This document shows positions 13,713 to 64,000 of a DNA stretch of 64,000 nt, one piece after another. A program made the position numbers and the translations under genes. This stretch comes from Gimesia benthica (GTDB lineage: Bacteria; Planctomycetota; Planctomycetia; Planctomycetales; Planctomycetaceae). The DNA is taken from the NCBI RefSeq assembly GCF_009720525.1, contig NZ_CP043930.1, positions 1,771,501-1,835,500 on the forward strand. The letters are read 5' to 3'. A model generated the notes under the pieces. That model was not told the origin of the DNA. It ran no database searches and saw only the letters and a program-made list of their open reading frames with translations. How positions within the stretch are numbered: position 1 is the first letter of the stretch; the number at the start of each line of letters is the position of its first letter.

Positions 13713-15371
13713 TTATGGGAACAGACCGCGCGCCAGCTTGGCCTGCGCGACGCGTTCAATCCCTTCCATGAGTGCCGCCGTCCGCATGTCGACGTTGTTC
13801 TTCTCCGCGCGGTTCAAAGTACGCTGAAAAGCATCTTGCAGAATGCGTTTCAATCGTTGATTGACTTCATCCAGGCTCCACATATAGTTCTGCGTATCCT
13901 GCACCCATTCGAAGTAAGAAACAGTCACCCCACCCGCGTTTGCCAGAATATCAGGGAGTATGAAAACCCCTTTTTCATTGAGTACCTCATCAGCTTCCAG
14001 CGTAGTAGGCCCGTTAGCACCTTCCGCCAGTAGACGGCAATTAATGCGATCTGCATTTTCTGCTGTAATCTGATTTTGCAATGCAGCAGGTACCAGAATA
14101 TCACACTCCAGTTCGAGCAGTTCCTGGTTCGTGATTTCATCTCCTTCAGAATAACCTTCCAGAAAACGGTTCTGACTCACATACTCAAGCAGTGAGGACA
14201 TCGAAAGCCCATTACGGTTATAGATGCCCGTAGTTGCATCACTGACACCAATGATTTTCACGCCCAGATCACTCAAAAACTGGGCAGCATGACTGCCCAC
14301 ATTTCCAAACCCCTGAATCACAGCCGTAGTCTCACTGAGATTCATCTTCAGATGATGGGCCGCTTCTTCAATCAGATAGACGACGCCTCTCCCTGTCGCT
14401 TCATTACGTCCCCTGGCCCCCCCGAGGACGACCGGCTTACCTGTCACAACTGCCGGCACAGAGTAACCTACTTGTTGGCTGTACGTATCCATTATCCAGG
14501 CCATCACCCGTTCGTTGGTTCCCATATCGGGAGCAGGAATATCTTTCTCGGGACCAATAATCGGACTGATTTCGGTCGCAAATCGTCGGGTGAGACGCTG
14601 CAGTTCATGCCCGGTTAACCCCGTGGGATCGATGCGTACGCCCCCTTTGGCTCCACCAAAGGGCAGGTGCACCAGGGCACACTTCCAGCTCATCCACATC
14701 GCCAGTGCTGAAACTTCTCCGAGGCTGACATCCTGATGATAACGAATCCCCCCCTTGGTAGGTCCCATGGTCAGAATGTGCTGTACTCGATAGCCGAATA
14801 CAGTTTCGACTTCGGTATAGTGGTCTCGACGAAATGGCAGTGTCACGACCAGCGTTCGTTGCGGAAACAGTAACCGCTGGCGAATATTATCGTCCAGTCC
14901 CATATATTGGGCCGCCTTGAGAAACTGCCGCTGCGCCAGCCTGAACATCGGCGAATCCCATTCGGCATCCCGCACACGTGTCCGCTCAATCGCATAACGC
15001 AAAGAACGTGTTAGCGAAGTTCGGCTCAGCTGTGTCTTAACCAGATAATCCTGGGCCCCCGCCTCAACCGCCTTCGCAGCCAGTTTCACATCATCCAGGC
15101 TCGTGACAATTACGATCGGGATCGAGGGAACAAACGAACGGACCCGGATGAACGTATCCAGATCCTCGCTGTCAGGCAGTGTCAAATCCAGCAGAATAAT
15201 GTCGACCGGAACTGCTTCGAGCAGTTTCAACCCATCCTGGAGAGATCCTGCATGCTGTAATTGAAATACGGGTGCCCGGGATTCCCCCAACAGGGTTTTC
15301 ACCAGTCCTACATGAATCGGGTTATCCTCAATGAACAATACTTTGACGCCACTTCCTGATGCGACATTCAT
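13713..15371 (-). CDS. Fused response-regulator receiver / glutamate dehydrogenase
   Basis: A 552-residue two-domain protein. Residues 8-125 form a complete receiver domain: acidic pair E15/D16, phosphoacceptor Asp62 in IILLDLTLP, Thr90 in VIVTS and Lys112 in YLVKT. Residues 140-552 are a full Glu/Leu/Phe/Val dehydrogenase. It has GPTKGGIRYH (Lys206), MSWKCALV (Lys230), PFGGAKGGV with catalytic-type Lys242, PAPDMGT with Asp282, and a Rossmann loop GFGNVGSHAA near 354-363. All expected catalytic residues of a glutamate dehydrogenase appear present, so the enzyme should interconvert glutamate and 2-oxoglutarate. Free-standing GDH is about 410-450 residues; the extra N-terminus is exactly a receiver. 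Its ATG overlaps the stop of the upstream hybrid histidine kinase (TAATG), implying coupled translation. I infer that phosphorylation by that kinase sets GDH activity or oligomer state. Confidence 0.93.
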   Translation of the reverse strand: MNVASGSGVKVLFIEDNPIHVGLVKTLLGESRAPVFQLQHAGSLQDGLKLLEAVPVDIILLDLTLPDSEDLDTFIRVRSFVPSIPIVIVTSLDDVKLAAKAVEAGAQDYLVKTQLSRTSLTRSLRYAIERTRVRDAEWDSPMFRLAQRQFLKAAQYMGLDDNIRQRLLFPQRTLVVTLPFRRDHYTEVETVFGYRVQHILTMGPTKGGIRYHQDVSLGEVSALAMWMSWKCALVHLPFGGAKGGVRIDPTGLTGHELQRLTRRFATEISPIIGPEKDIPAPDMGTNERVMAWIMDTYSQQVGYSVPAVVTGKPVVLGGARGRNEATGRGVVYLIEEAAHHLKMNLSETTAVIQGFGNVGSHAAQFLSDLGVKIIGVSDATTGIYNRNGLSMSSLLEYVSQNRFLEGYSEGDEITNQELLELECDILVPAALQNQITAENADRINCRLLAEGANGPTTLEADEVLNEKGVFILPDILANAGGVTVSYFEWVQDTQNYMWSLDEVNQRLKRILQDAFQRTLNRAEKNNVDMRTAALMEGIERVAQAKLARGLFP

Positions 15372-18300
15372 TATTTATTTCCTTCCAGAGCGGTAGAATC
15401 AATGTGAGCAGAAACAGCTGGCAGTAACCGGTCGACTTCCTGTTCCAGGGCAGGCAGAGCTTCGCGCGCTTCCGTCAGCTTTTCCTCTTTTCCAAGTAAC
15501 TCCAGCTCCAACGCGGCATCGGCAGCATGGTGTGCTTCAAAAACGGCAGCTGAACTTTTAAGTGTATGAGCGGCTCGCCTTAGTGACGAAGCATCCCCCT
15601 GTTGTATTGCATCCCGAATTTCGTTCAGCAATTTAGGGGCTTCCTGCAGAAATAGTTGTCCCAGTTCGCTCAAGGCTTCAGCAGGTATTTCTGATTTCTC
15701 CATTGCCTGCTCCCAGTTCAATACATCGTCATGGGAATCCTGTTCTTCAGACGGGTTCATGATTAACTCCTCTCTCGATTCTTCCCCCTGGGTTGTCTCG
15801 TGTTCCATCTGAATCGAATCAGCCTGCTGTTCTGACTCTTCAGGTGTGGACTCATTTTTTACAGCTGCGAGTTGGGCATTCATTTGCAGTGTTTCTTCAA
15901 TCATCTGGTACAGTTCTCGCACACGCACCGGTTTAGAAACGTAGCCGTCCATACCGGCCTCAAGGCAGCGTTCCCGGTCTCCCTTCATCGCATGTGCAGT
16001 CATCGCAATGATTGGTATATGTTCCTCGCATGTCTGTTCGTAGTCTCGAATTTCGCGCGTCGCTTCCAGACCGTCCATCTCAGGCATCTGGACATCCATT
16101 AGAATGAGATCAAAATGAGCTGTTTTTCTCTGTTCGACCGCCTCTTTCCCGTTGGTCACGACAGTAATTTCGTGGCCATGGGGTTGCAGCAGGGCCAGCG
16201 CCAGTTTCTGATTCACGATACTGTCTTCTGCCAGCAGTATTTTTAAAGGCGGAATACGCTTACCCAGTTCAGCCGTTTTCAATCGCGTCGAATGATGATC
16301 TGCTCCGTTAATTCCCAATGTCTCTGCAATCGAGTTAAACAGTTCCGATTGCTTGAGAGGCTTAATCAGGTGCGCTGCAATTCCGAGTTTCTTGCAGCGG
16401 GAGATCTCCCCTCTTCGGTCACTGGAAGTAATCATCATAATGACTGCACTTCCCAGTTCCTTATCCTGTTTGATCGCTTTCGCCAGCGAGAACCCATCCA
16501 TCGTCGGCATATTCGCGTCCACCAGTACGAGATCGAAAGGTTCACCCACCCTCACACGGGCATGCATCGCTTCCAGAGCATCTTTCCCACGCGTGACGGT
16601 TTGGGGTTGCATCTTCCAGTTAGAGAGCATTTCTTCCAGAATTTGACAGTTAGTGAGGTTATCATCAACAACCAGCACGCGCAGGCCATCCAGGTCAGCT
16701 TTGACCAATGGTTCACTGGCGGGGACTTCTTCCTGTGTCAGCTCAAAATGAGCTGTAAAATGAAATGCACTCCCCTGATCGACTTCACTGATGACCCAGA
16801 TTCGCCCCCCCATTAAATTGATCAGGCGGGAAGCAATCGCCAGGCCGAGTCCAGTACCGCTGAAACGACGGGCCATCGATTCATCAACCTGCTCGAAGGC
16901 CTGAAAGATTTGTTTCTGTTTGCTTTTGGGAATTCCGATACCCGTATCACGCACGACGAAGTGCAACAGAACGTCTCTCTCTGATTGAGATTCGACATTT
17001 ACATCTACGACTACTTCTCCCTCATCCGTAAATTTGATGGCATTTCCGACGAGATTGACAATGATCTGTCGTAAGCGGTAACGGTCACCAACGATGGTAT
17101 CAGGAACTTCCGGTGCCAGATGAAATGCCAGTTCCAGGCGTTTGTGATGCGCGCGAACAGCCAGCGATTTCATGGTATCTCCCAGATTTTCCCTCAGATG
17201 GAATGCGGCCTGATCCAGATCGAATCGGCCTGCTTCAATTTTGGAGAAATCCAGAATATCATTGATGACTGCCAGTAAAGATTCCCCCGATTCCTGCACC
17301 ATGGTCATGTATTCCCGCTGGGTGGGGTTCAGATCGGTATCGAGCAGTAATTCGGTCATACCAATTACGGCATTCATGGGAGTTCGGATTTCGTGACTCA
17401 TCGTTGCCAGAAAAGCACTTTTTGCCTGGCTGGCAGCCTCGGCAGCTTCTTTAGCCCGTTTGAGTTCTTCTTCGGCCCGTTTGACTTCCGTGATATCATG
17501 CACAAAAGCAGCAAACAGGAAATTGTCCCCCTGCCGCACGGGAGTGATCGTCAGCTCCACAGGAAATTCGTGGCCATCCTGATGCAGAGCTGAGAGTTCC
17601 AGACGCTTGTTAAGAACAGGGCCTTCACCTGATGCAAGAAATTTTTCGACCCCCTGCATATGTTGCAATCGATAGCGTTCCGGAATGATGGTCTCTACCA
17701 ACGATCGTCCAATCACCTCCGGTTGAGTCCATCCAAAAGTCGCTTCCGCCTGTTCATTCCAGTCACAGATTCGACTGTTCTCATCGATACCGACGAACGC
17801 TTCGTGCGTCGTCGCCAGAATTGCCCGGTTTTTCTTATCGCGTGATTCCAGTTCTTCCTGTGTGGCTTTCGCTTCGGTAATATCGTGCATTACGATCACG
17901 CCACCACGCAGATCACCACGATCATTCTTCAATGGACGTGCAGTCACACTGATCCAGGTTCCGTCAGGAATATCGGGATTTTTGAGAAAGAGAATCGAAT
18001 CATCGAGTGACTCTCCCCGCATGGCCCGCGCCAGAGGCAGATCCTCGGAAGGACACATCGAAACTCCATCTGCAAGGTAACAGCCATAAATCTGTGACCA
18101 CTTGGAAGGATCTACATTCTGCGGTCCGATACCAACAATCTGCTCTGCAGCCGGGTTCCAGAAGACGGAATTCCCATCCTGATCCGCAACGATCACTCCA
18201 TCTCCCATGCTGTCCAAAATTGACTGCAGGATTTGAGTCTGGCGACGCAATTTCTTTTGGGAGGCGTTCAACTCCGCAGTTCGTTGTTCGATCCGTTCCT

Positions 18301-19489
18301 CCAGTTGATCCCGTGAGGCTGCCAATTCAGACGTCATATGATTAAACGCAGCCCCCAGCATCCCCACTTCATCTGTCGAAGTGATCGGCACCCGGACATC
18401 CAGATTTCCACGAGCAATTTTCGATGCAGTATCGGCCAGTCCCAATACCGGCCGGGTCACTCTCCGGGCAACCAGAAAAGAGACCACCATTCCGAAAAAA
18501 ACGAGCCCAAACTGCAGTCCCAGTAACAGATGACGTAAATGTGTTACGGGAGCGTAAGCCTCTGTCAGATCTATTTTGGCTACCATTCCCCAGGGAGCAT
18601 CATCACTATTAGGCTGATAATCTACAGGACGGTAAGAAACAAGCACTTCATCGCCACTGTAATGCATAACCTCGGATCCGCTTTCTCCATTCAGCGCTTT
18701 CTCCATGGCAGGCACTTCTTTGAGCTGTACCGATCGTTGCATGCTGTCTTCCGGGGTTAATAAATATCGGACCTGATCCCCCTCTCTGGTCGCGACCAGA
18801 AGTGCTCCCGTGTCCTGCAACCCCGTCCGATTCGTCAGAATCCGCTCCAGAGGAGTGACATCGAGCCAGACCATTAAAACGCCGATCAGATCCCCCGCTT
18901 CACTCTTCATGGGAGCCATGAGGTAAGTCACATACTTACCATCCACTTTCTGTGGATAATCCAGCTGGGGATGTTCTTTCGCTTTCAGAAATCCAGGATC
19001 ATCGGCAAAGGTCTGATTGAGATAATTGTCACTCGTCGCAGTGATCACAGTCCCTTCCGGATTCACAATCCAGAGATCTCGAAACTCGGAGGTACTCCCC
19101 GAAATAGTATCTTCCAGTATCCGCTTTGATTCTGACTGGAAAGCATCCTCATCGAGAGTTCCTTGTTCGAAGTCTTGAATCAGCTCCCTCAGGTGAGTCC
19201 GACTGGTAATCAACGCAGCTCGATCCAACTGCTGTCGCACATATCCTTCGAATAATGCAGCCCGGTCACTGACAACCAGTTGAAGGCGGACGCGGATATT
19301 ATCGTGCAGAATATCGCGGGCAAAAATATAAGCAAGATGCCCCAGAATACCGGCAGTGAGCACCACAACAATGGCCACAAACAGCGTGTTCTTTAAGAGC
19401 AATGATCGCCAGAAAGAAGGTGGCTCAGCTGTGAACGAACGCTGATCGTCTGGCGGTGGGACGGGATTCTGTTGTTCGGAAGCGTACAT
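15371..19489 (-). CDS. Membrane hybrid histidine kinase (Cache-HAMP-PAS-PAS-HK-REC-REC-HPt)
   Basis: 1372 residues from ATG 19489, chosen because GAGGAAGG lies 8 nt upstream; the longer frame from 19555 lacks such a site. Order of domains: transmembrane helix 35-56, periplasmic Cache-type sensor about 60-315, second helix about 320-342 and HAMP to about 395. Then two PAS domains (about 420-535 and 550-670) and the HisKA domain with phosphoacceptor His699 in MSHEIRTPMNAV. The ATPase domain follows (NLVGNAIKF, DTGIGIP, GTGLGLAI). Receiver 1 has Asp991 in LVDANMP, receiver 2 has LILMDVQMPEMDG, and the C-terminal HPt domain has AHTLKSSAAVF. It senses a periplasmic small molecule through the Cache domain and runs a phosphorelay. 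The coupled downstream gene is a receiver-GDH fusion, so the output probably includes direct control of glutamate metabolism. Confidence 0.94.
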   Translation of the reverse strand: MYASEQQNPVPPPDDQRSFTAEPPSFWRSLLLKNTLFVAIVVVLTAGILGHLAYIFARDILHDNIRVRLQLVVSDRAALFEGYVRQQLDRAALITSRTHLRELIQDFEQGTLDEDAFQSESKRILEDTISGSTSEFRDLWIVNPEGTVITATSDNYLNQTFADDPGFLKAKEHPQLDYPQKVDGKYVTYLMAPMKSEAGDLIGVLMVWLDVTPLERILTNRTGLQDTGALLVATREGDQVRYLLTPEDSMQRSVQLKEVPAMEKALNGESGSEVMHYSGDEVLVSYRPVDYQPNSDDAPWGMVAKIDLTEAYAPVTHLRHLLLGLQFGLVFFGMVVSFLVARRVTRPVLGLADTASKIARGNLDVRVPITSTDEVGMLGAAFNHMTSELAASRDQLEERIEQRTAELNASQKKLRRQTQILQSILDSMGDGVIVADQDGNSVFWNPAAEQIVGIGPQNVDPSKWSQIYGCYLADGVSMCPSEDLPLARAMRGESLDDSILFLKNPDIPDGTWISVTARPLKNDRGDLRGGVIVMHDITEAKATQEELESRDKKNRAILATTHEAFVGIDENSRICDWNEQAEATFGWTQPEVIGRSLVETIIPERYRLQHMQGVEKFLASGEGPVLNKRLELSALHQDGHEFPVELTITPVRQGDNFLFAAFVHDITEVKRAEEELKRAKEAAEAASQAKSAFLATMSHEIRTPMNAVIGMTELLLDTDLNPTQREYMTMVQESGESLLAVINDILDFSKIEAGRFDLDQAAFHLRENLGDTMKSLAVRAHHKRLELAFHLAPEVPDTIVGDRYRLRQIIVNLVGNAIKFTDEGEVVVDVNVESQSERDVLLHFVVRDTGIGIPKSKQKQIFQAFEQVDESMARRFSGTGLGLAIASRLINLMGGRIWVISEVDQGSAFHFTAHFELTQEEVPASEPLVKADLDGLRVLVVDDNLTNCQILEEMLSNWKMQPQTVTRGKDALEAMHARVRVGEPFDLVLVDANMPTMDGFSLAKAIKQDKELGSAVIMMITSSDRRGEISRCKKLGIAAHLIKPLKQSELFNSIAETLGINGADHHSTRLKTAELGKRIPPLKILLAEDSIVNQKLALALLQPHGHEITVVTNGKEAVEQRKTAHFDLILMDVQMPEMDGLEATREIRDYEQTCEEHIPIIAMTAHAMKGDRERCLEAGMDGYVSKPVRVRELYQMIEETLQMNAQLAAVKNESTPEESEQQADSIQMEHETTQGEESREELIMNPSEEQDSHDDVLNWEQAMEKSEIPAEALSELGQLFLQEAPKLLNEIRDAIQQGDASSLRRAAHTLKSSAAVFEAHHAADAALELELLGKEEKLTEAREALPALEQEVDRLLPAVSAHIDSTALEGNK

Positions 19490-58025: not shown

Positions 58026-61000
58026 TCAGAGTTCTGATCGCCATTTCGTCAATTCGCTGGTGAGACGTTCAATTTCTAATTCCAAGGCAGGAATTGCATC
58101 GGGAACCCCCTGCAAATCTCCTTGAAGTCCCATCTCTTCGATCACCTTCGCAGCCCCTACTGCCGAATCTGCGTTGAAGTTGGCGCAGAGCCCTTTGAGA
58201 CTATGTGCTGCGCGCGCAACTTCATCTGCATCTCCTGACTGATTCTGCTTAGAAATCTCTTGAACCAAGCCAGGTGCATCCTCAAAAAAATATCCGACCA
58301 TCGAGTTGAGCAAATCGGAATCATTCCCCACACGGTCTAGTGCAGCCTTCATATCCATTACAGGCTGAGTTGAAACTATACCTGCGGAGTCAGCTAGAGT
58401 CTGTTCCGATGTCTTGCCTGCTGGATCAGCGGAGGAACTTGATTCTTCTCTGGTAATCGCCGAGTTTAAATTAGACTGGCGCGGGTATTTTGATGCCAGA
58501 CGTTCCAGCAGCCTGATGAGCTTGGGGGCATCGATTGGCTTCGAGATATAATTATCCATCCCCGCAGAGATGCACTTATCACGATCACCCCGCATGGCAT
58601 AAGCAGTCATTGCGATAATGGGGATATGCTCATCGGCATCCTCTTCATATTCGCGAATCATTCTTGTCGCCTGCAGACCATCCATGGTTGGCATCTGCAC
58701 ATCCATTAATACGACGTCGAAGGTATCATTGCGCACCCATTCCACAGCCTCGCGACCGTTATTGGCGATGACACACTGGTGCCCCCTCTTCTTCAGTATT
58801 GCTGTAATTACTTTCTGATTTGCAGGTGTATCTTCCGCTACCAGGATTCGCAGTGACTGTTTGGTCTCGTTAATCTGCACAACACCATTTCTCTCGAGCT
58901 GTGGTCCTTTTAATGCGGTCATAATGGCATCGAGTAAATCAGACTGGGAAATTGGTTTCTCCAGAAATGCCGAGATATCGAGCCCCTGACACCGCTCTCC
59001 GAAAATCTGATGATCTGCTGATGAAAGCATCAAAATGGTGGCCGTATCAAGCAGCCCCTCTTCTCGGGCTTGCTCAAGAAGCATAAAGCCATCGGTTTCA
59101 GGCATCAGCGCATCAACGATTACCAGAGGATACTCTGTCTCAGTTTCCTGGATTGAGTTGAGATGCTGTAATGCTTCTTTCGCGGATTCTACTGGCGTGG
59201 GAGACATTGACCAGTTCGACAACATTTCCTCTAAAATCACACGATTCGTCTGGTTGTCGTCTACCACCAGTACGGGAAGATCTTTTAACTCAGACACTCG
59301 CGACTTCTCTCCTGGGAAATCTATTTCTTCCGGATCAGCAACCGGGAATACAACCTGAAATGAAAACCGGCTACCTTGTCCAAGATCACTTTTCAAATTC
59401 ATCTGGCCTTTCATGAGGCTGATTAGTTCGTGACAAATTGCCAGTCCCAAGCCAGTTCCTGAATAATGCCTGGTTGTAGAAGCATCCGCTTGAGCAAATG
59501 GAGCAAAGATCCGCTCCTGATCTTCCGGTGCAATACCGATGCCGGTATCCGACACACTGAATTCCAGAAGTACTTGTTTTTCAGTATGTTTGCCGATGAT
59601 CGGTTCAATAGCAGATCGACCATCTGCAGGAGAATAGACTGATTCTTCGATAAACTTGACATTAACAACGACTTCACCCTGTTCGGTAAATTTTATCGCG
59701 TTACCTGCCAGGTTGGTTAAAATCTGTCTCAACCTGACCGGATCTCCAATGACGCGCCCCGGCACACGCCGATCAATACGACAGATTACTTCCAGCCCTT
59801 TTTCACAGGCGCGGAGAGAGAGCGTTTTGATTGCCTCATCAATAAGTTCTCTCAAATTGAAGGCAACGGGCTCCAGCTCAAAGCGCCCCGCCTCAAGTCG
59901 TGAGAAATCCAGAATGTCATTTACCAGAAGCAACAGTGAATCGGCGGAGTCTTTTGCTGTCTGCAGGTAGTCCCGTTTCAACGGAGTTAAGTCTTCCTGA
60001 AGAGTCAGTTCAAGCATTCCCAGAATCGCGTTCATGGGTGTCCTCAGCTCGTGACTGACGTTTGCCAGAAACTCACTTTGTGTGCGGGTTGCCTGCTCTG
60101 CTTCATCGCGTGCTTTGCTGAGCTCCTCTTCGCGACGTCGGCGTGCAGTAATATCTCGCTCAATGGTCGAAGTTCCTACAATCTGGTTATCCATCCCACG
60201 GATTGGTGAAACGGAAATGGAAACATCGATGATCGAACCATCTTTTCTCACCCGCCGTGTCTGAAATTGATCGAGGCGACGTCCCGTCTTCATTGCTTCC
60301 AGAATCTCTGATTCCTCACGAGCCATCCCTGGTGGCAGTAAGACCGATACCGTCTCGCCGATAACTTCATCCGCTATCCAGCCATAGATTTCTTCAGCAC
60401 CTTTATTCCAGGAAGTGATTGTGCCATCGGGCGCCTTGCCGATGATGGCGTCCCCTGAAGACTCCACAATCGCGGCCAGTCGAGTTCGTTCTTCCTGCCA
60501 TTGCACACGTTCAATAACATGGCGGATCAGGTTTCCCACCCCACGTGCCAGTGCCAGCAGATTTAGATCAGGTGTTGTCAGCCGCGTATTAAAGAATTCT
60601 ACGACTGCGATAACCTCGCCATCGAGTTTCACGGGAAATCCAAATGCAGAGCGAACCCCCAGTGACGAAAAGTCGCGGGGAGACTGGAGTGATTGATCAT
60701 GCTCAATATCTGTAATCCAGACCGGTTCGCCGCGTTGCCAGACTTGTCCGGGCAAATCCTCACCACGGGAAATACTGAGTTGCTGGGAAGCCTCATCCAG
60801 TGCTCTAAAATTATCTCGATTGGAAAAATGCCAGATCCGCGAAGAGACCAGACGGGTTCCATTTTGATTCATGAGGAATGCATGCCCGACAGGCCAGCCG
60901 GAAATTTCGCCGAGATTAGCGACACAGATTCTTAAAGCATCTTCCAGAGCATCAATGGTCGATGAAGCAAAACTGGCCTGTTGGAGAAGCGCAGCCTCAA

Positions 61001-61445
61001 GCTTTTCCCGTGCAATTAACTGTTCCGCTTCTTTGCGATCCGAAACATCACGAACGAAAGCATTAAATATCGTCTCCTCTTTCCAGTCGACTTTGGTAAC
61101 CATCAGTTCCACAGGAAACTCGTGACCATTCCGCCTGAGAGCGGTTAGCTCCAGCTTCTGGTTGATGACTCGCCCCTTACCTGTCGATTTAAAAAGTCTC
61201 ATACCGTCGAGGTGTTGCAGACGATACTGCTCCGGAATGATCAGATCAACCAGAGGATTCCCAACTGCTTCATCGTAAGACCAGCCAAAGATCTCTTCCG
61301 CACGTCGATTCCAGTCTACTACCAGCCCTTCCATATCCATCGTAATGACAGCATCCAAAGCAGAATCAATAATCTTCTGCAATTGTTCATCAGAAGCCCA
61401 GAGTGCTGAATTGGGGATATTCTCATTCGGCGAGGAAGGAACCAT
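58026..61445 (-). CDS. Soluble hybrid histidine kinase (PAS-GAF-PAS-HK-REC-REC-HPt)
   Basis: 1139 residues without transmembrane segments. PAS 1 covers about 18-135 and a GAF domain about 150-310 (LPGQVWQRGEPVWITDI, SAFGFPVKLDGEVIAVVEFF). PAS 2 covers about 320-435. HisKA has His465 in NVSHELRTPMNAIL. The ATPase domain carries NLAGNAIKF, DTGIGIA and GTGLGLAI. Receiver 1 (LVVDDNQTNRVIL, Asp in VIVDALMPE) and receiver 2 (VLMDVQMPTMDG) are followed by an HPt domain (AHSLKGLCANF). PAS 1 closely resembles the second PAS of the kinase at 15371-19489 (YRLQH..., NG/DGHEFPVEL), so the two are paralogues. It should run an intracellular phosphorelay; its partner may be the sigma-54 activator at the right edge. 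It is flanked by stress-type membrane protein genes. Confidence 0.93.
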   Translation of the reverse strand: MVPSSPNENIPNSALWASDEQLQKIIDSALDAVITMDMEGLVVDWNRRAEEIFGWSYDEAVGNPLVDLIIPEQYRLQHLDGMRLFKSTGKGRVINQKLELTALRRNGHEFPVELMVTKVDWKEETIFNAFVRDVSDRKEAEQLIAREKLEAALLQQASFASSTIDALEDALRICVANLGEISGWPVGHAFLMNQNGTRLVSSRIWHFSNRDNFRALDEASQQLSISRGEDLPGQVWQRGEPVWITDIEHDQSLQSPRDFSSLGVRSAFGFPVKLDGEVIAVVEFFNTRLTTPDLNLLALARGVGNLIRHVIERVQWQEERTRLAAIVESSGDAIIGKAPDGTITSWNKGAEEIYGWIADEVIGETVSVLLPPGMAREESEILEAMKTGRRLDQFQTRRVRKDGSIIDVSISVSPIRGMDNQIVGTSTIERDITARRRREEELSKARDEAEQATRTQSEFLANVSHELRTPMNAILGMLELTLQEDLTPLKRDYLQTAKDSADSLLLLVNDILDFSRLEAGRFELEPVAFNLRELIDEAIKTLSLRACEKGLEVICRIDRRVPGRVIGDPVRLRQILTNLAGNAIKFTEQGEVVVNVKFIEESVYSPADGRSAIEPIIGKHTEKQVLLEFSVSDTGIGIAPEDQERIFAPFAQADASTTRHYSGTGLGLAICHELISLMKGQMNLKSDLGQGSRFSFQVVFPVADPEEIDFPGEKSRVSELKDLPVLVVDDNQTNRVILEEMLSNWSMSPTPVESAKEALQHLNSIQETETEYPLVIVDALMPETDGFMLLEQAREEGLLDTATILMLSSADHQIFGERCQGLDISAFLEKPISQSDLLDAIMTALKGPQLERNGVVQINETKQSLRILVAEDTPANQKVITAILKKRGHQCVIANNGREAVEWVRNDTFDVVLMDVQMPTMDGLQATRMIREYEEDADEHIPIIAMTAYAMRGDRDKCISAGMDNYISKPIDAPKLIRLLERLASKYPRQSNLNSAITREESSSSADPAGKTSEQTLADSAGIVSTQPVMDMKAALDRVGNDSDLLNSMVGYFFEDAPGLVQEISKQNQSGDADEVARAAHSLKGLCANFNADSAVGAAKVIEEMGLQGDLQGVPDAIPALELEIERLTSELTKWRSEL

Positions 61446-62688: not shown

Positions 62689-64000
62689 TCAACTGCCATT
62701 CTCATCAATGCTGACTGTCTTCTCGAGGGAAATTCCAAATTGCGCAATACGATCACGAATTTTGCCTCGCGTGATCCCCAGGATCTCTGCAGCGCGGGTC
62801 TGATTTCCCCCTGTTTCATTTAGAACACGGGTTAAGAGATAACGCTCCATCGTTTCCAGAGTCTCGCTGTACAAGTCTTTGGTTTGCGCTGCAAGCCTCT
62901 GATCGACAAATAGTTGAAGATCTGAGAGCGGCAATGCCGGATCTTCGTCCAGAGGATCTTCTGACTGGAAGACTTCGGGAGTTGATTTAAATTGACTGGA
63001 AACGTCATCAGGAAGAAAAGAAGGAACGATTACCGGGCTGGTACTGTTCAATAGAGATTGACGGACTACACTCTGCAATTCACGCACATTCCCTGGCCAG
63101 CGATATTGTAACAACTGATCCAGGGCTTCAGAGGAAATTCCCTCGATCTCGGTACGCCCCATTTCGTAACATGCTTCGTTGAGATAGTGCTCAACCAGCA
63201 GAGCGATGTCGTTTCCTCGTTCCCGGAGGGGAGGTAGCGAGATAGTCATTCCATTCAGACGATAAAAGAGGTCTTCTCGAAACGTGCCGTCTTTCACCAT
63301 CTGTTCCAGGTTTCGATTAGTAGCAGCAATAATACGTACGTCTGTTTCAATTGTCTTATTGCCACCTACGCGTTCGAACTTCTGTTCCTGCAACAGCCGC
63401 AGTACTTTCCCCTGAGTGAGCTGTGACATGTCCCCCACTTCATCCAAAAAGATTGTACCGCCATTGCATTGCTCAAATTTACCGATTCGCTGTCGGTCAG
63501 CGCCTGTAAAAGCTCCTTTTTCATAGCCAAAAAGTTCGCTTTCCAGCAGAGTCTCTGTCAGTGCTGCACAGTTTACCGCCATAAAGCATTCTTCAGAGCG
63601 AGGGCTATGCTGGTAAATGGCTCTGGCGACGAGCTCTTTCCCGGTTCCACTTTCACCACGAATCAGTACATTAACATTTTCCGAGGCGACACGTCCGATA
63701 GACTTGAAGACTTCCAGCATCTGTGGACTGCGACCGACAAACTGATCTCCGCTACTCCGTTTCTTTCCTCCCACAGGCAGGGCCACAGGAATATTCATCA
63801 ATCGCCTGTTCTCGATAGCTTTCGAAACCAGATCGTTCAGTTTGGGAAGATCCAATGGCTTAGCCAGATAGTCAAACGCTCCCAGCTGCATTGCTTCAAT
63901 TGCAACATTGCTTTCACTGGAAGAGGTAATGAAGAGCACTGGCAGCCTGCGATCCAATTCACGAATTTCTCGAAACACATCCAGTCCGGACACGACCGGC
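62689..64000 (-). CDS. Sigma-54-dependent response regulator (5' end cut by window edge)
   Basis: The frame is open to the right edge, so the N-terminus and the phosphoacceptor region are outside. What remains starts in the second half of a receiver domain (SGLDVFREI, VLFITSSSES, FDYLAKPLDL). The AAA+ domain has Walker A GESGTGKE, an intact GAFTGA loop (EKGAFTGADRQR), Walker B TIFLDEVGDM and RYRWPGNVREL-like sensor 2. A linker with EDPLDEDPALPLSD leads to a Fis-type helix-turn-helix (TRAAEILGITRGKIRDRIAQFG). It activates sigma-54 RNA polymerase when phosphorylated. The closest target is the sigma-54 promoter at 62416-62431. The soluble hybrid kinase nearby may phosphorylate it. Confidence 0.93.
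   Translation of the reverse strand, partial: PVVSGLDVFREIRELDRRLPVLFITSSSESNVAIEAMQLGAFDYLAKPLDLPKLNDLVSKAIENRRLMNIPVALPVGGKKRSSGDQFVGRSPQMLEVFKSIGRVASENVNVLIRGESGTGKELVARAIYQHSPRSEECFMAVNCAALTETLLESELFGYEKGAFTGADRQRIGKFEQCNGGTIFLDEVGDMSQLTQGKVLRLLQEQKFERVGGNKTIETDVRIIAATNRNLEQMVKDGTFREDLFYRLNGMTISLPPLRERGNDIALLVEHYLNEACYEMGRTEIEGISSEALDQLLQYRWPGNVRELQSVVRQSLLNSTSPVIVPSFLPDDVSSQFKSTPEVFQSEDPLDEDPALPLSDLQLFVDQRLAAQTKDLYSETLETMERYLLTRVLNETGGNQTRAAEILGITRGKIRDRIAQFGISLEKTVSIDENGS

What the first reader, a model, noticed from the sequence alone, without database searches (positions are those of the whole stretch)
13713..19489. Receiver domain fused to glutamate dehydrogenase and coupled to a Cache-type hybrid kinase
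The sequence shows a complete receiver (E15/D16, Asp62, Thr90, Lys112) joined to a complete glutamate dehydrogenase (Lys206, Lys230, Lys242, Asp282, Rossmann loop). Its start overlaps the stop of a hybrid kinase with periplasmic sensor, two receivers and HPt. Response regulators with enzymatic outputs are mostly cyclic-nucleotide, methylesterase or phosphatase types; a central nitrogen enzyme as direct output is unusual. It suggests that an external ligand switches glutamate/2-oxoglutarate flux by phosphorylation without transcription.
Basis: partly seen in the sequence, partly recalled or inferred. Interest (0 to 1): 0.78.

Follow-up and report, generated by a model that had tools for sequence, protein, structure and literature searches.

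The report
Phosphorelay wired to glutamate dehydrogenase
A bacterial signalling chain appears to end not in a gene switch but in a central nitrogen enzyme, glutamate dehydrogenase, and the same sensor-enzyme pair recurs in several unrelated bacterial groups, so it is probably a real and little-studied way of controlling metabolism directly.

Summary
Window 13713-15371(-) encodes one 552-residue protein, an intact receiver (REC) followed by an intact hexameric-type glutamate dehydrogenase (GDH). It overlaps by one base (TAATG) the stop of a dCache-HAMP-PAS-PAS-HisKA-HATPase-REC-REC-HPt kinase (15371-19489, -). The fusion is neither unique nor unlisted: database proteins carry it, and P2CS (2009) lists GDH as a 'Probable' enzyme in two-component proteins. 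No study of it appeared in my ten searches of the held papers. New here: REC-GDH occurs in at least six phyla. A histidine kinase lies within 400 bp in 58 of 69 informative loci; 51 of 54 complete ones keep the HPt histidine. In 23 of 23 linked genomes examined, that kinase is the genome's best-scoring relative of the window's kinase core. Sensors differ between groups. The best reading is a portable phosphorelay, HisKA to REC to HPt to REC-GDH, that switches GDH after translation; the effect on GDH is inferred. 'External ligand' fits Gimesia, not the family: 23 of 57 partner kinases lack a predicted membrane segment. Two Halomonadaceae carry a catalytically dead GDH under purifying selection.

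The parts
13713..15371 (-). REC-GDH fusion gene, 552 aa, including stop
15027..15347 (-). receiver domain, about residues 9-115; phospho-acceptor Asp62
   Evidence: Pfam 11-114; Asp62 kept in 77 of 77 REC-bearing sequences; model elements E9-14 to E108-111
14901..15023 (-). linker: helix 117-136 followed by helix 141-157, where the match to other GDHs begins
   Evidence: model secondary structure; conserved EWDSPMFRLAQxQFLKAA-like stretch; PDB GDH matches start at residue 141
13716..14954 (-). glutamate dehydrogenase, about residues 140-552, catalytic Lys206, Lys230, Lys242, Asp282
15371..19489 (-). hybrid sensor kinase, 1372 aa, including stop
18581..19309 (-). dCache_1 sensor domain, residues 61-303, with predicted membrane segments at both ends
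18323..18475 (-). HAMP
17867..18217 (-). PAS domain 1
17486..17800 (-). PAS domain 2
17228..17425 (-). HisKA with phospho-acceptor His (residue 699 from the ATG)
16748..17089 (-). HATPase_c
16310..16687 (-). receiver 1 of the kinase (limits set by me, approximate; Asp 991 from the ATG)
   Evidence: two Response_reg stretches, only the better one located; Asp
15896..16240 (-). receiver 2 of the kinase (Asp 1132 from the ATG)
15425..15658 (-). HPt domain (His 1308 from the ATG), one of 7 Hpt matches in the genome
15371..15371 (-). one-base overlap of kinase stop and REC-GDH start (TAATG)

Best explanation
A multistep phosphorelay with an enzyme as its terminal output. Step 1 (inferred): the kinase's sensor, a dCache domain in Gimesia, sets autophosphorylation of the HisKA histidine. 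Step 2 (inferred from a conserved architecture): the phosphoryl group passes to a kinase receiver, then to the C-terminal HPt histidine. Step 3 (inferred from co-inheritance): HPt passes it to Asp62 of REC-GDH, the kind of acceptor such relays use. Step 4 (inferred): phosphorylation of REC shifts the activity, effector response or assembly of the fused GDH, and so glutamate/2-oxoglutarate/ammonium flux, without transcription. The direction of the effect (on or off) is not known. The kinase-output pair is inherited together while the sensor is exchanged between lineages.
For: Asp62 is kept in 77 of 77 REC-bearing sequences; Lys206, Lys230 and Asp282 in 79 of 81 and Lys242 in 81 of 81. A kinase lies within 400 bp in 58 of 69 informative loci, against no kinase part in 27 plain or REC-less GDH loci, most of them read with short flanks. 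In 54 complete partner kinases the HK His is kept in 54, REC1 Asp in 52, REC2 Asp in 54, HPt His in 51. In 23 of 23 linked genomes examined, the linked kinase is the best match to the window's kinase core. In 17 Gimesia-genus genomes kinase sensor and REC-GDH are both found in 8, both missing in 8, and one has REC-GDH on a contig that ends inside the kinase. The REC active site is intact in 58 of 58 kinase-linked cases and 8 of 11 unlinked ones, Fisher p 0.003. The own genome shows only 7 Hpt matches. No other neighbour family was seen shared across phyla.
Against: No biochemistry. 11 planctomycete REC-GDHs have no kinase nearby, and 8 of them keep an intact REC. Four close relatives lack REC altogether. 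Three of 54 complete partner kinases show no HPt His (L056, L082, L104), and L082 and L083 lack the REC1 Asp. The two dead enzymes show that the output need not be catalysis. Three other GDH-family genes exist in the own genome, so this is not its only GDH. The Fisher test ignores relatedness, and the 11 unlinked cases are one phylum. The model is of one chain, mean pLDDT 77.6, with residues 201-206, 272-287 and 302-318 under 50, and says nothing about how REC touches the hexamer.
Confidence: 0.66

Rival explanations
1. REC-GDH is a regulator that uses the GDH fold to read glutamate/2-oxoglutarate/NAD(H) state and acts through a partner protein; catalysis is secondary or dispensable.
For: Two Halomonadaceae (L098, L103) carry REC-GDH with Lys206, Lys230 and Asp282 replaced and a stretch deleted nearby, still beside an intact relay kinase. 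dN/dS of the GDH part is 0.134, against 0.136 and 0.187 in two active Halomonas pairs. Bacillus RocG/GudB act as regulators as well as enzymes (recalled).
Against: Lys206, Lys230 and Asp282 are kept in 79 of 81 sequences. In 4 of 27 genomes REC-GDH is the only PF00208 match, which favours an enzymatic role. The two dead copies are 96% identical, so this may be one event.
Confidence: 0.18
2. Reverse flow or sink: REC drains phosphate from the relay, with GDH ligand state gating it, so the enzyme reports metabolism to the kinase.
For: HPt relays are reversible (recalled); REC and GDH are joined by conserved helices.
Against: No second response regulator shared across the loci turned up as an alternative output within the flanks compared; one encoded elsewhere in the genome is not excluded.
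Confidence: 0.08
3. REC serves only as a scaffold or assembly domain for GDH; phosphorylation is irrelevant and the kinase has another target.
For: Unlinked planctomycete copies exist, three of 11 with a changed active-site set; REC-less relatives exist.
Against: The acceptor Asp is kept in 77 of 77, and the pair is co-inherited with relay kinases.
Confidence: 0.08

Closest known systems
Hexameric glutamate dehydrogenase (Thermotoga maritima 1b26; B. subtilis RocG 3k92, GudB 3k8z)
   Same: GDH part aligns end to end with 1b26, 53% identity and TM-score 0.90 by target length; catalytic lysines and aspartate present
   Different: In the 1b26 match only residues 141-552 align; here GDH follows a REC and a conserved linker
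Unorthodox HPt-bearing hybrid kinases (BarA, TorS, EvgS)
   Same: HisKA-HATPase-REC-HPt core; best NCBIfam scores are BarA and TorS, below their cut-offs
   Different: Two receivers in the window's kinase; sensors differ across the family; the linked partner is an enzyme, not a DNA-binding regulator
Response regulators with enzymatic output (CheB, PleD, RpfG; recalled)
   Same: REC followed by an enzyme domain
   Different: Those act on signalling proteins or second messengers; here the output is a central-metabolism enzyme
P2CS list of enzymes in two-component proteins (PMC2716373, Table 1; one passage and section 5 read)
   Same: EC 1.4.1.3 glutamate dehydrogenase is listed as 'Probable'
   Different: List entry only: the section read names no such protein, kinase, distribution or mechanism
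OdhI/PknG control of the 2-oxoglutarate node in Corynebacterium (PMC9769921; title and start of abstract seen in the listing)
   Same: A membrane and periplasmic input is proposed to control 2-oxoglutarate dehydrogenase by protein phosphorylation
   Different: Kinase PknG and a separate inhibitor protein, not a His-Asp relay into the enzyme itself

Membership tests
Response regulator | REC domain with acidic pair, phospho-acceptor Asp, Thr/Ser and Lys | tested here: met
Response regulator | Accepts phosphate from a cognate kinase or HPt | not testable with these tools
   Linkage and co-inheritance only
Response regulator | Output changes with phosphorylation | not testable with these tools
   Needs an assay
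Hexameric glutamate dehydrogenase | ELFV_dehydrog_N plus ELFV_dehydrog over full length with catalytic Lys/Lys/Lys/Asp | tested here: met
Hexameric glutamate dehydrogenase | Assembles as a hexamer and oxidises glutamate | not testable with these tools
   Single-chain model only
Unorthodox HPt hybrid kinase | HisKA, HATPase, REC and HPt in one protein with phospho-residues | tested here: met
BarA or TorS equivalog | Score above the NCBIfam cut-off | tested here: not met
   541.3 against 890 and 520.1 against 676.5 bits

The most novel reading that the evidence does not exclude
REC-GDH and its HPt kinase form a widely spread, sensor-swappable cassette that sets a central nitrogen enzyme directly by aspartyl phosphorylation in several phyla; in one Halomonadaceae branch the enzyme has become a non-catalytic regulator still driven by the same relay, so the GDH fold itself has become a signalling output.
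Probability: 0.35. Interest if true: 0.8.

Novelty: new variant of a known kind. Interest (0 to 1): 0.62.

Why it matters
Two-component outputs are mostly transcription, second messengers or chemotaxis (general knowledge). A relay whose last phosphate lands on glutamate dehydrogenase would be direct, fast control of the carbon-nitrogen branch point. The pair is compact, mostly in one gene neighbourhood on one strand, recurs in cultured bacteria (Gimesia, Halomonas, Zobellella, Ensifer, Ruegeria), and gives defined acceptor residues, so the question is directly testable. Natural controls exist: unlinked, REC-less and catalytically dead versions.

Tried and rejected
PMC12918730 (GrtK/GrtR ammonia sensing; outline and passages read) looked like a match, but its regulator is a Fis-type DNA-binding protein. 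Term searches inside PMC4558063 and PMC1183210 found no GDH output; only passages were seen. Galperin 2010 on output domains is not held, so prior mention there cannot be excluded.

A first Mantel test (34 sequences) suggested that REC tracks the kinase more than its own GDH (0.80 against 0.54). This was an artefact of an outlier. With L098, L103 and L082 left out (32 sequences) REC-kinase is 0.82, GDH-kinase 0.86 and REC-GDH 0.86. I claim only that the pair is inherited together.

The tree (75 rows after dropping near-identical and short ones) nested REC-less GDHs inside REC-GDHs, suggesting REC loss. A test did not reject REC-GDHs as their own clade (p 0.765; 0.413 without L098), so loss against sister group is left open.

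Ligand of the dCache domain: no usable relative of known ligand; the best PDB sequence hit is sporulation kinase D at E 0.28. Not pursued.

The largest 'shared neighbour' cluster (15 loci) consists, as far as listed, of minus-strand frames that overlap REC-GDH or lie close to it (shadow frames); it was dropped without a family search. A Na+/dicarboxylate symporter-like gene recurs in six Latescibacterota/Gemmatimonadota loci; its name is my reading of the sequence.

Coenzyme (NAD or NADP) was not decided from sequence.
Full report
WHAT IS THERE. The window lies in an 8.03-Mb single-contig genome. The closest relatives that bear a name are Gimesia, a planctomycete genus. On the minus strand a 1372-residue kinase (15371-19489) is followed, with a one-base TAATG overlap, by a 552-residue REC-GDH protein (13713-15371). 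The kinase carries dCache, HAMP, two PAS, HisKA, HATPase, two receivers and HPt. The GDH part is closest among solved structures to Thermotoga maritima GDH. The model shows a REC, a helix at 117-136, then a helix at 141-157, where matches to other GDHs begin.

HOW COMMON. A protein search scored 8000 candidates and listed the best 120. Of these, 119 carry the three Pfam domains at 69-99% identity; one (P0018, 458 aa) shows only the two GDH domains. A genome scan with the REC-plus-linker alignment confirmed 178 stretches, of which the best 80 were kept as loci. They come from Planctomycetota, Pseudomonadota (alpha and gamma), Myxococcota, Gemmatimonadota, Latescibacterota and one Zixiibacteriota; Lujinxingia and some unassigned metagenome-assembled genomes (MAGs) are also among them. 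Distribution is patchy. In 393 sampled Planctomycetota genomes 15 have a match that runs into the GDH part (E 1e-72 or better); 14 further genomes matched by REC alone and are not counted. It is in 9 of 17 genomes of the genus and 10 of 201 sampled in the family of Bisbaumannia.

THE PAIR. With the window added there are 81 sequences; 4 lack REC (L110, L111, L113, L114), leaving 77. Of these, 58 have a kinase within 400 bp: 48 downstream, 8 upstream as in Gimesia, 2 on the opposite strand. Four of the 58 kinases are cut by contig ends, leaving 54 complete. Eight of the other 19 loci sit at contig ends where a kinase core could not be seen on one side (L037, L043, L044, L060, L061, L076, L102, L107). 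The remaining 11, all from Planctomycetota, have no kinase core found in the locus (L038, L069, L071, L084, L085, L089, L093, L099, L106, L108, L109). So 58 of 69 informative loci are linked.

As a control, none of 27 plain or REC-less GDH loci shows a kinase part. Flanks there were a few hundred bases to 1.5 kb, and 1.2 to 10 kb for the four REC-less ones; two of the 27 are probably copies of one gene. In 14 REC-GDH loci read with 1.5-kb flanks, 7 of 7 from the Gimesia genus showed a kinase core, while 7 of 7 from other planctomycetes did not; one of these, L014, gave only a REC match in a 558-residue frame, the length of the REC-GDH frame itself. The control is therefore uneven in flank and in relatedness.

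CO-INHERITANCE. I searched the window's kinase core through 28 genomes: the own one and 27 chosen from those of the 80 loci. The tool scored at most 42 candidate places a genome. Set aside were the own genome, three without linkage (G114, G115, G119) and Roseiconus (G099). In 23 of 23 of the rest the best match is the kinase next to REC-GDH; in G100 two kinases lie in tandem there and rank first and second. The three unlinked genomes have unlinked kinases that score as high (571-596 bits), so an unlinked partner is possible. In Roseiconus the best match, 58% identical, lies near the end of a 10,958-base contig, and REC-GDH starts at the beginning of another, as if the pair were cut by assembly.

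In 17 Gimesia-genus genomes, 8 have both the kinase's sensor region and REC-GDH, 8 have neither by strong match (two of these, G005 and G015, are only 74-76% complete), and one (G006) has REC-GDH on a contig that ends inside the kinase. Distances of kinase core, REC and GDH correlate at 0.82-0.86 over 32 sequences.

RELAY RESIDUES AND SENSORS. In 54 complete partner kinases the HK His is kept in 54, REC1 Asp in 52, REC2 Asp in 54, and HPt His in 51 (missing in L056, L082, L104). Sensors are not conserved. Among 57 sensor regions Pfam finds PAS_7 in 26, CHASE in 9, GAF in 9, dCache in 3, DUF4154 in 3, V4R in 2 and a TorS sensor in 1, the last a weak match. By a simple hydropathy scan 23 of 57 have no membrane segment (L036, cut at its start, left out). 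The conserved unit is the relay plus REC-GDH; the input is exchanged.

WHAT HAPPENS WITHOUT THE KINASE. The REC active-site set (E/D, D, D, T/S, K) is intact in 58 of 58 linked cases and in 8 of 11 unlinked ones; L099, L106 and L108 have changes (Fisher p 0.003, relatedness not corrected). This fits REC being kept for phosphorylation, but it is one phylum and may reflect few events. REC and REC-less GDHs form one group against the 22 plain GDHs used (99% SH-aLRT), which fits a single fusion. Whether REC-less ones lost REC or never had it is open.

DEAD ENZYME. In L098 (Bisbaumannia pacifica) and L103 (Halomonas sp. 328) the GDH lacks Lys206, Lys230 and Asp282 and has a deletion nearby, while the REC set and the neighbouring kinase's relay residues are intact. 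dN/dS between the two is 0.055 for REC, 0.134 for the GDH part and 0.166 for the kinase; two active Halomonas pairs give GDH 0.187 and 0.136. The dead enzyme therefore appears to be under selection to stay. The two are 96% identical, so they count as one case.

ROLE IN THE CELL. The own genome has four matches to the GDH-family N domain including this one, so it adds a regulated GDH to others. In 4 of 27 carrier genomes (G101, G102, G103, G107) REC-GDH is the only PF00208 match; three are MAGs, so absence is provisional, and other GDH types need not match this model.

LITERATURE. P2CS (PMC2716373; a passage and section 5 read) lists EC 1.4.1.3 as 'Probable' among enzymes in two-component proteins. 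In ten searches of the held library I saw no study of the fusion. Several listings were capped at 12 or 20 rows, I opened four papers, and most subscription journals are not held. Database names such as 'response regulator' or 'Glu/Leu/Phe/Val dehydrogenase dimerization domain-containing protein' show that it is annotated in public.

VERDICT. The external-ligand claim is limited to Gimesia-like sensors. The effect on GDH activity is the missing, testable step.

Noticed in passing
window 58026-61445 (-): A second HPt hybrid kinase (1139 aa), the best other match to the REC-GDH kinase core in this genome (513 bits, 45%). Window 62689-63999 (-) encodes what reads as a receiver followed by a sigma-54 AAA regulator (my reading of the sequence).
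   Followed up: partly
L098:9992-11620 and L103:9992-11620: REC-GDH with a dead GDH active site beside an intact relay kinase, under purifying selection.
   Followed up: yes
L110, L111, L113, L114: GDHs of the same subfamily without REC and with no kinase part found in the locus.
   Followed up: partly
L046:11831-19080: Pontibacterium granulatum has two HPt hybrid kinases in tandem after REC-GDH, possibly two inputs to one enzyme.
   Followed up: no
L084:11997-16977 and L093:12015-16986: In Stieleria and strain TBK1r the unlinked REC-GDH is followed by a 213-aa frame that reads like an ECF sigma factor and a frame of about 1450 aa; no family search was run.
   Followed up: no
G000:C1:5053570-5054868 and G000:C1:7065625-7066923: Two GDH matches of equal score at distant places in the own genome, probably a duplicated gene.
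   Followed up: no
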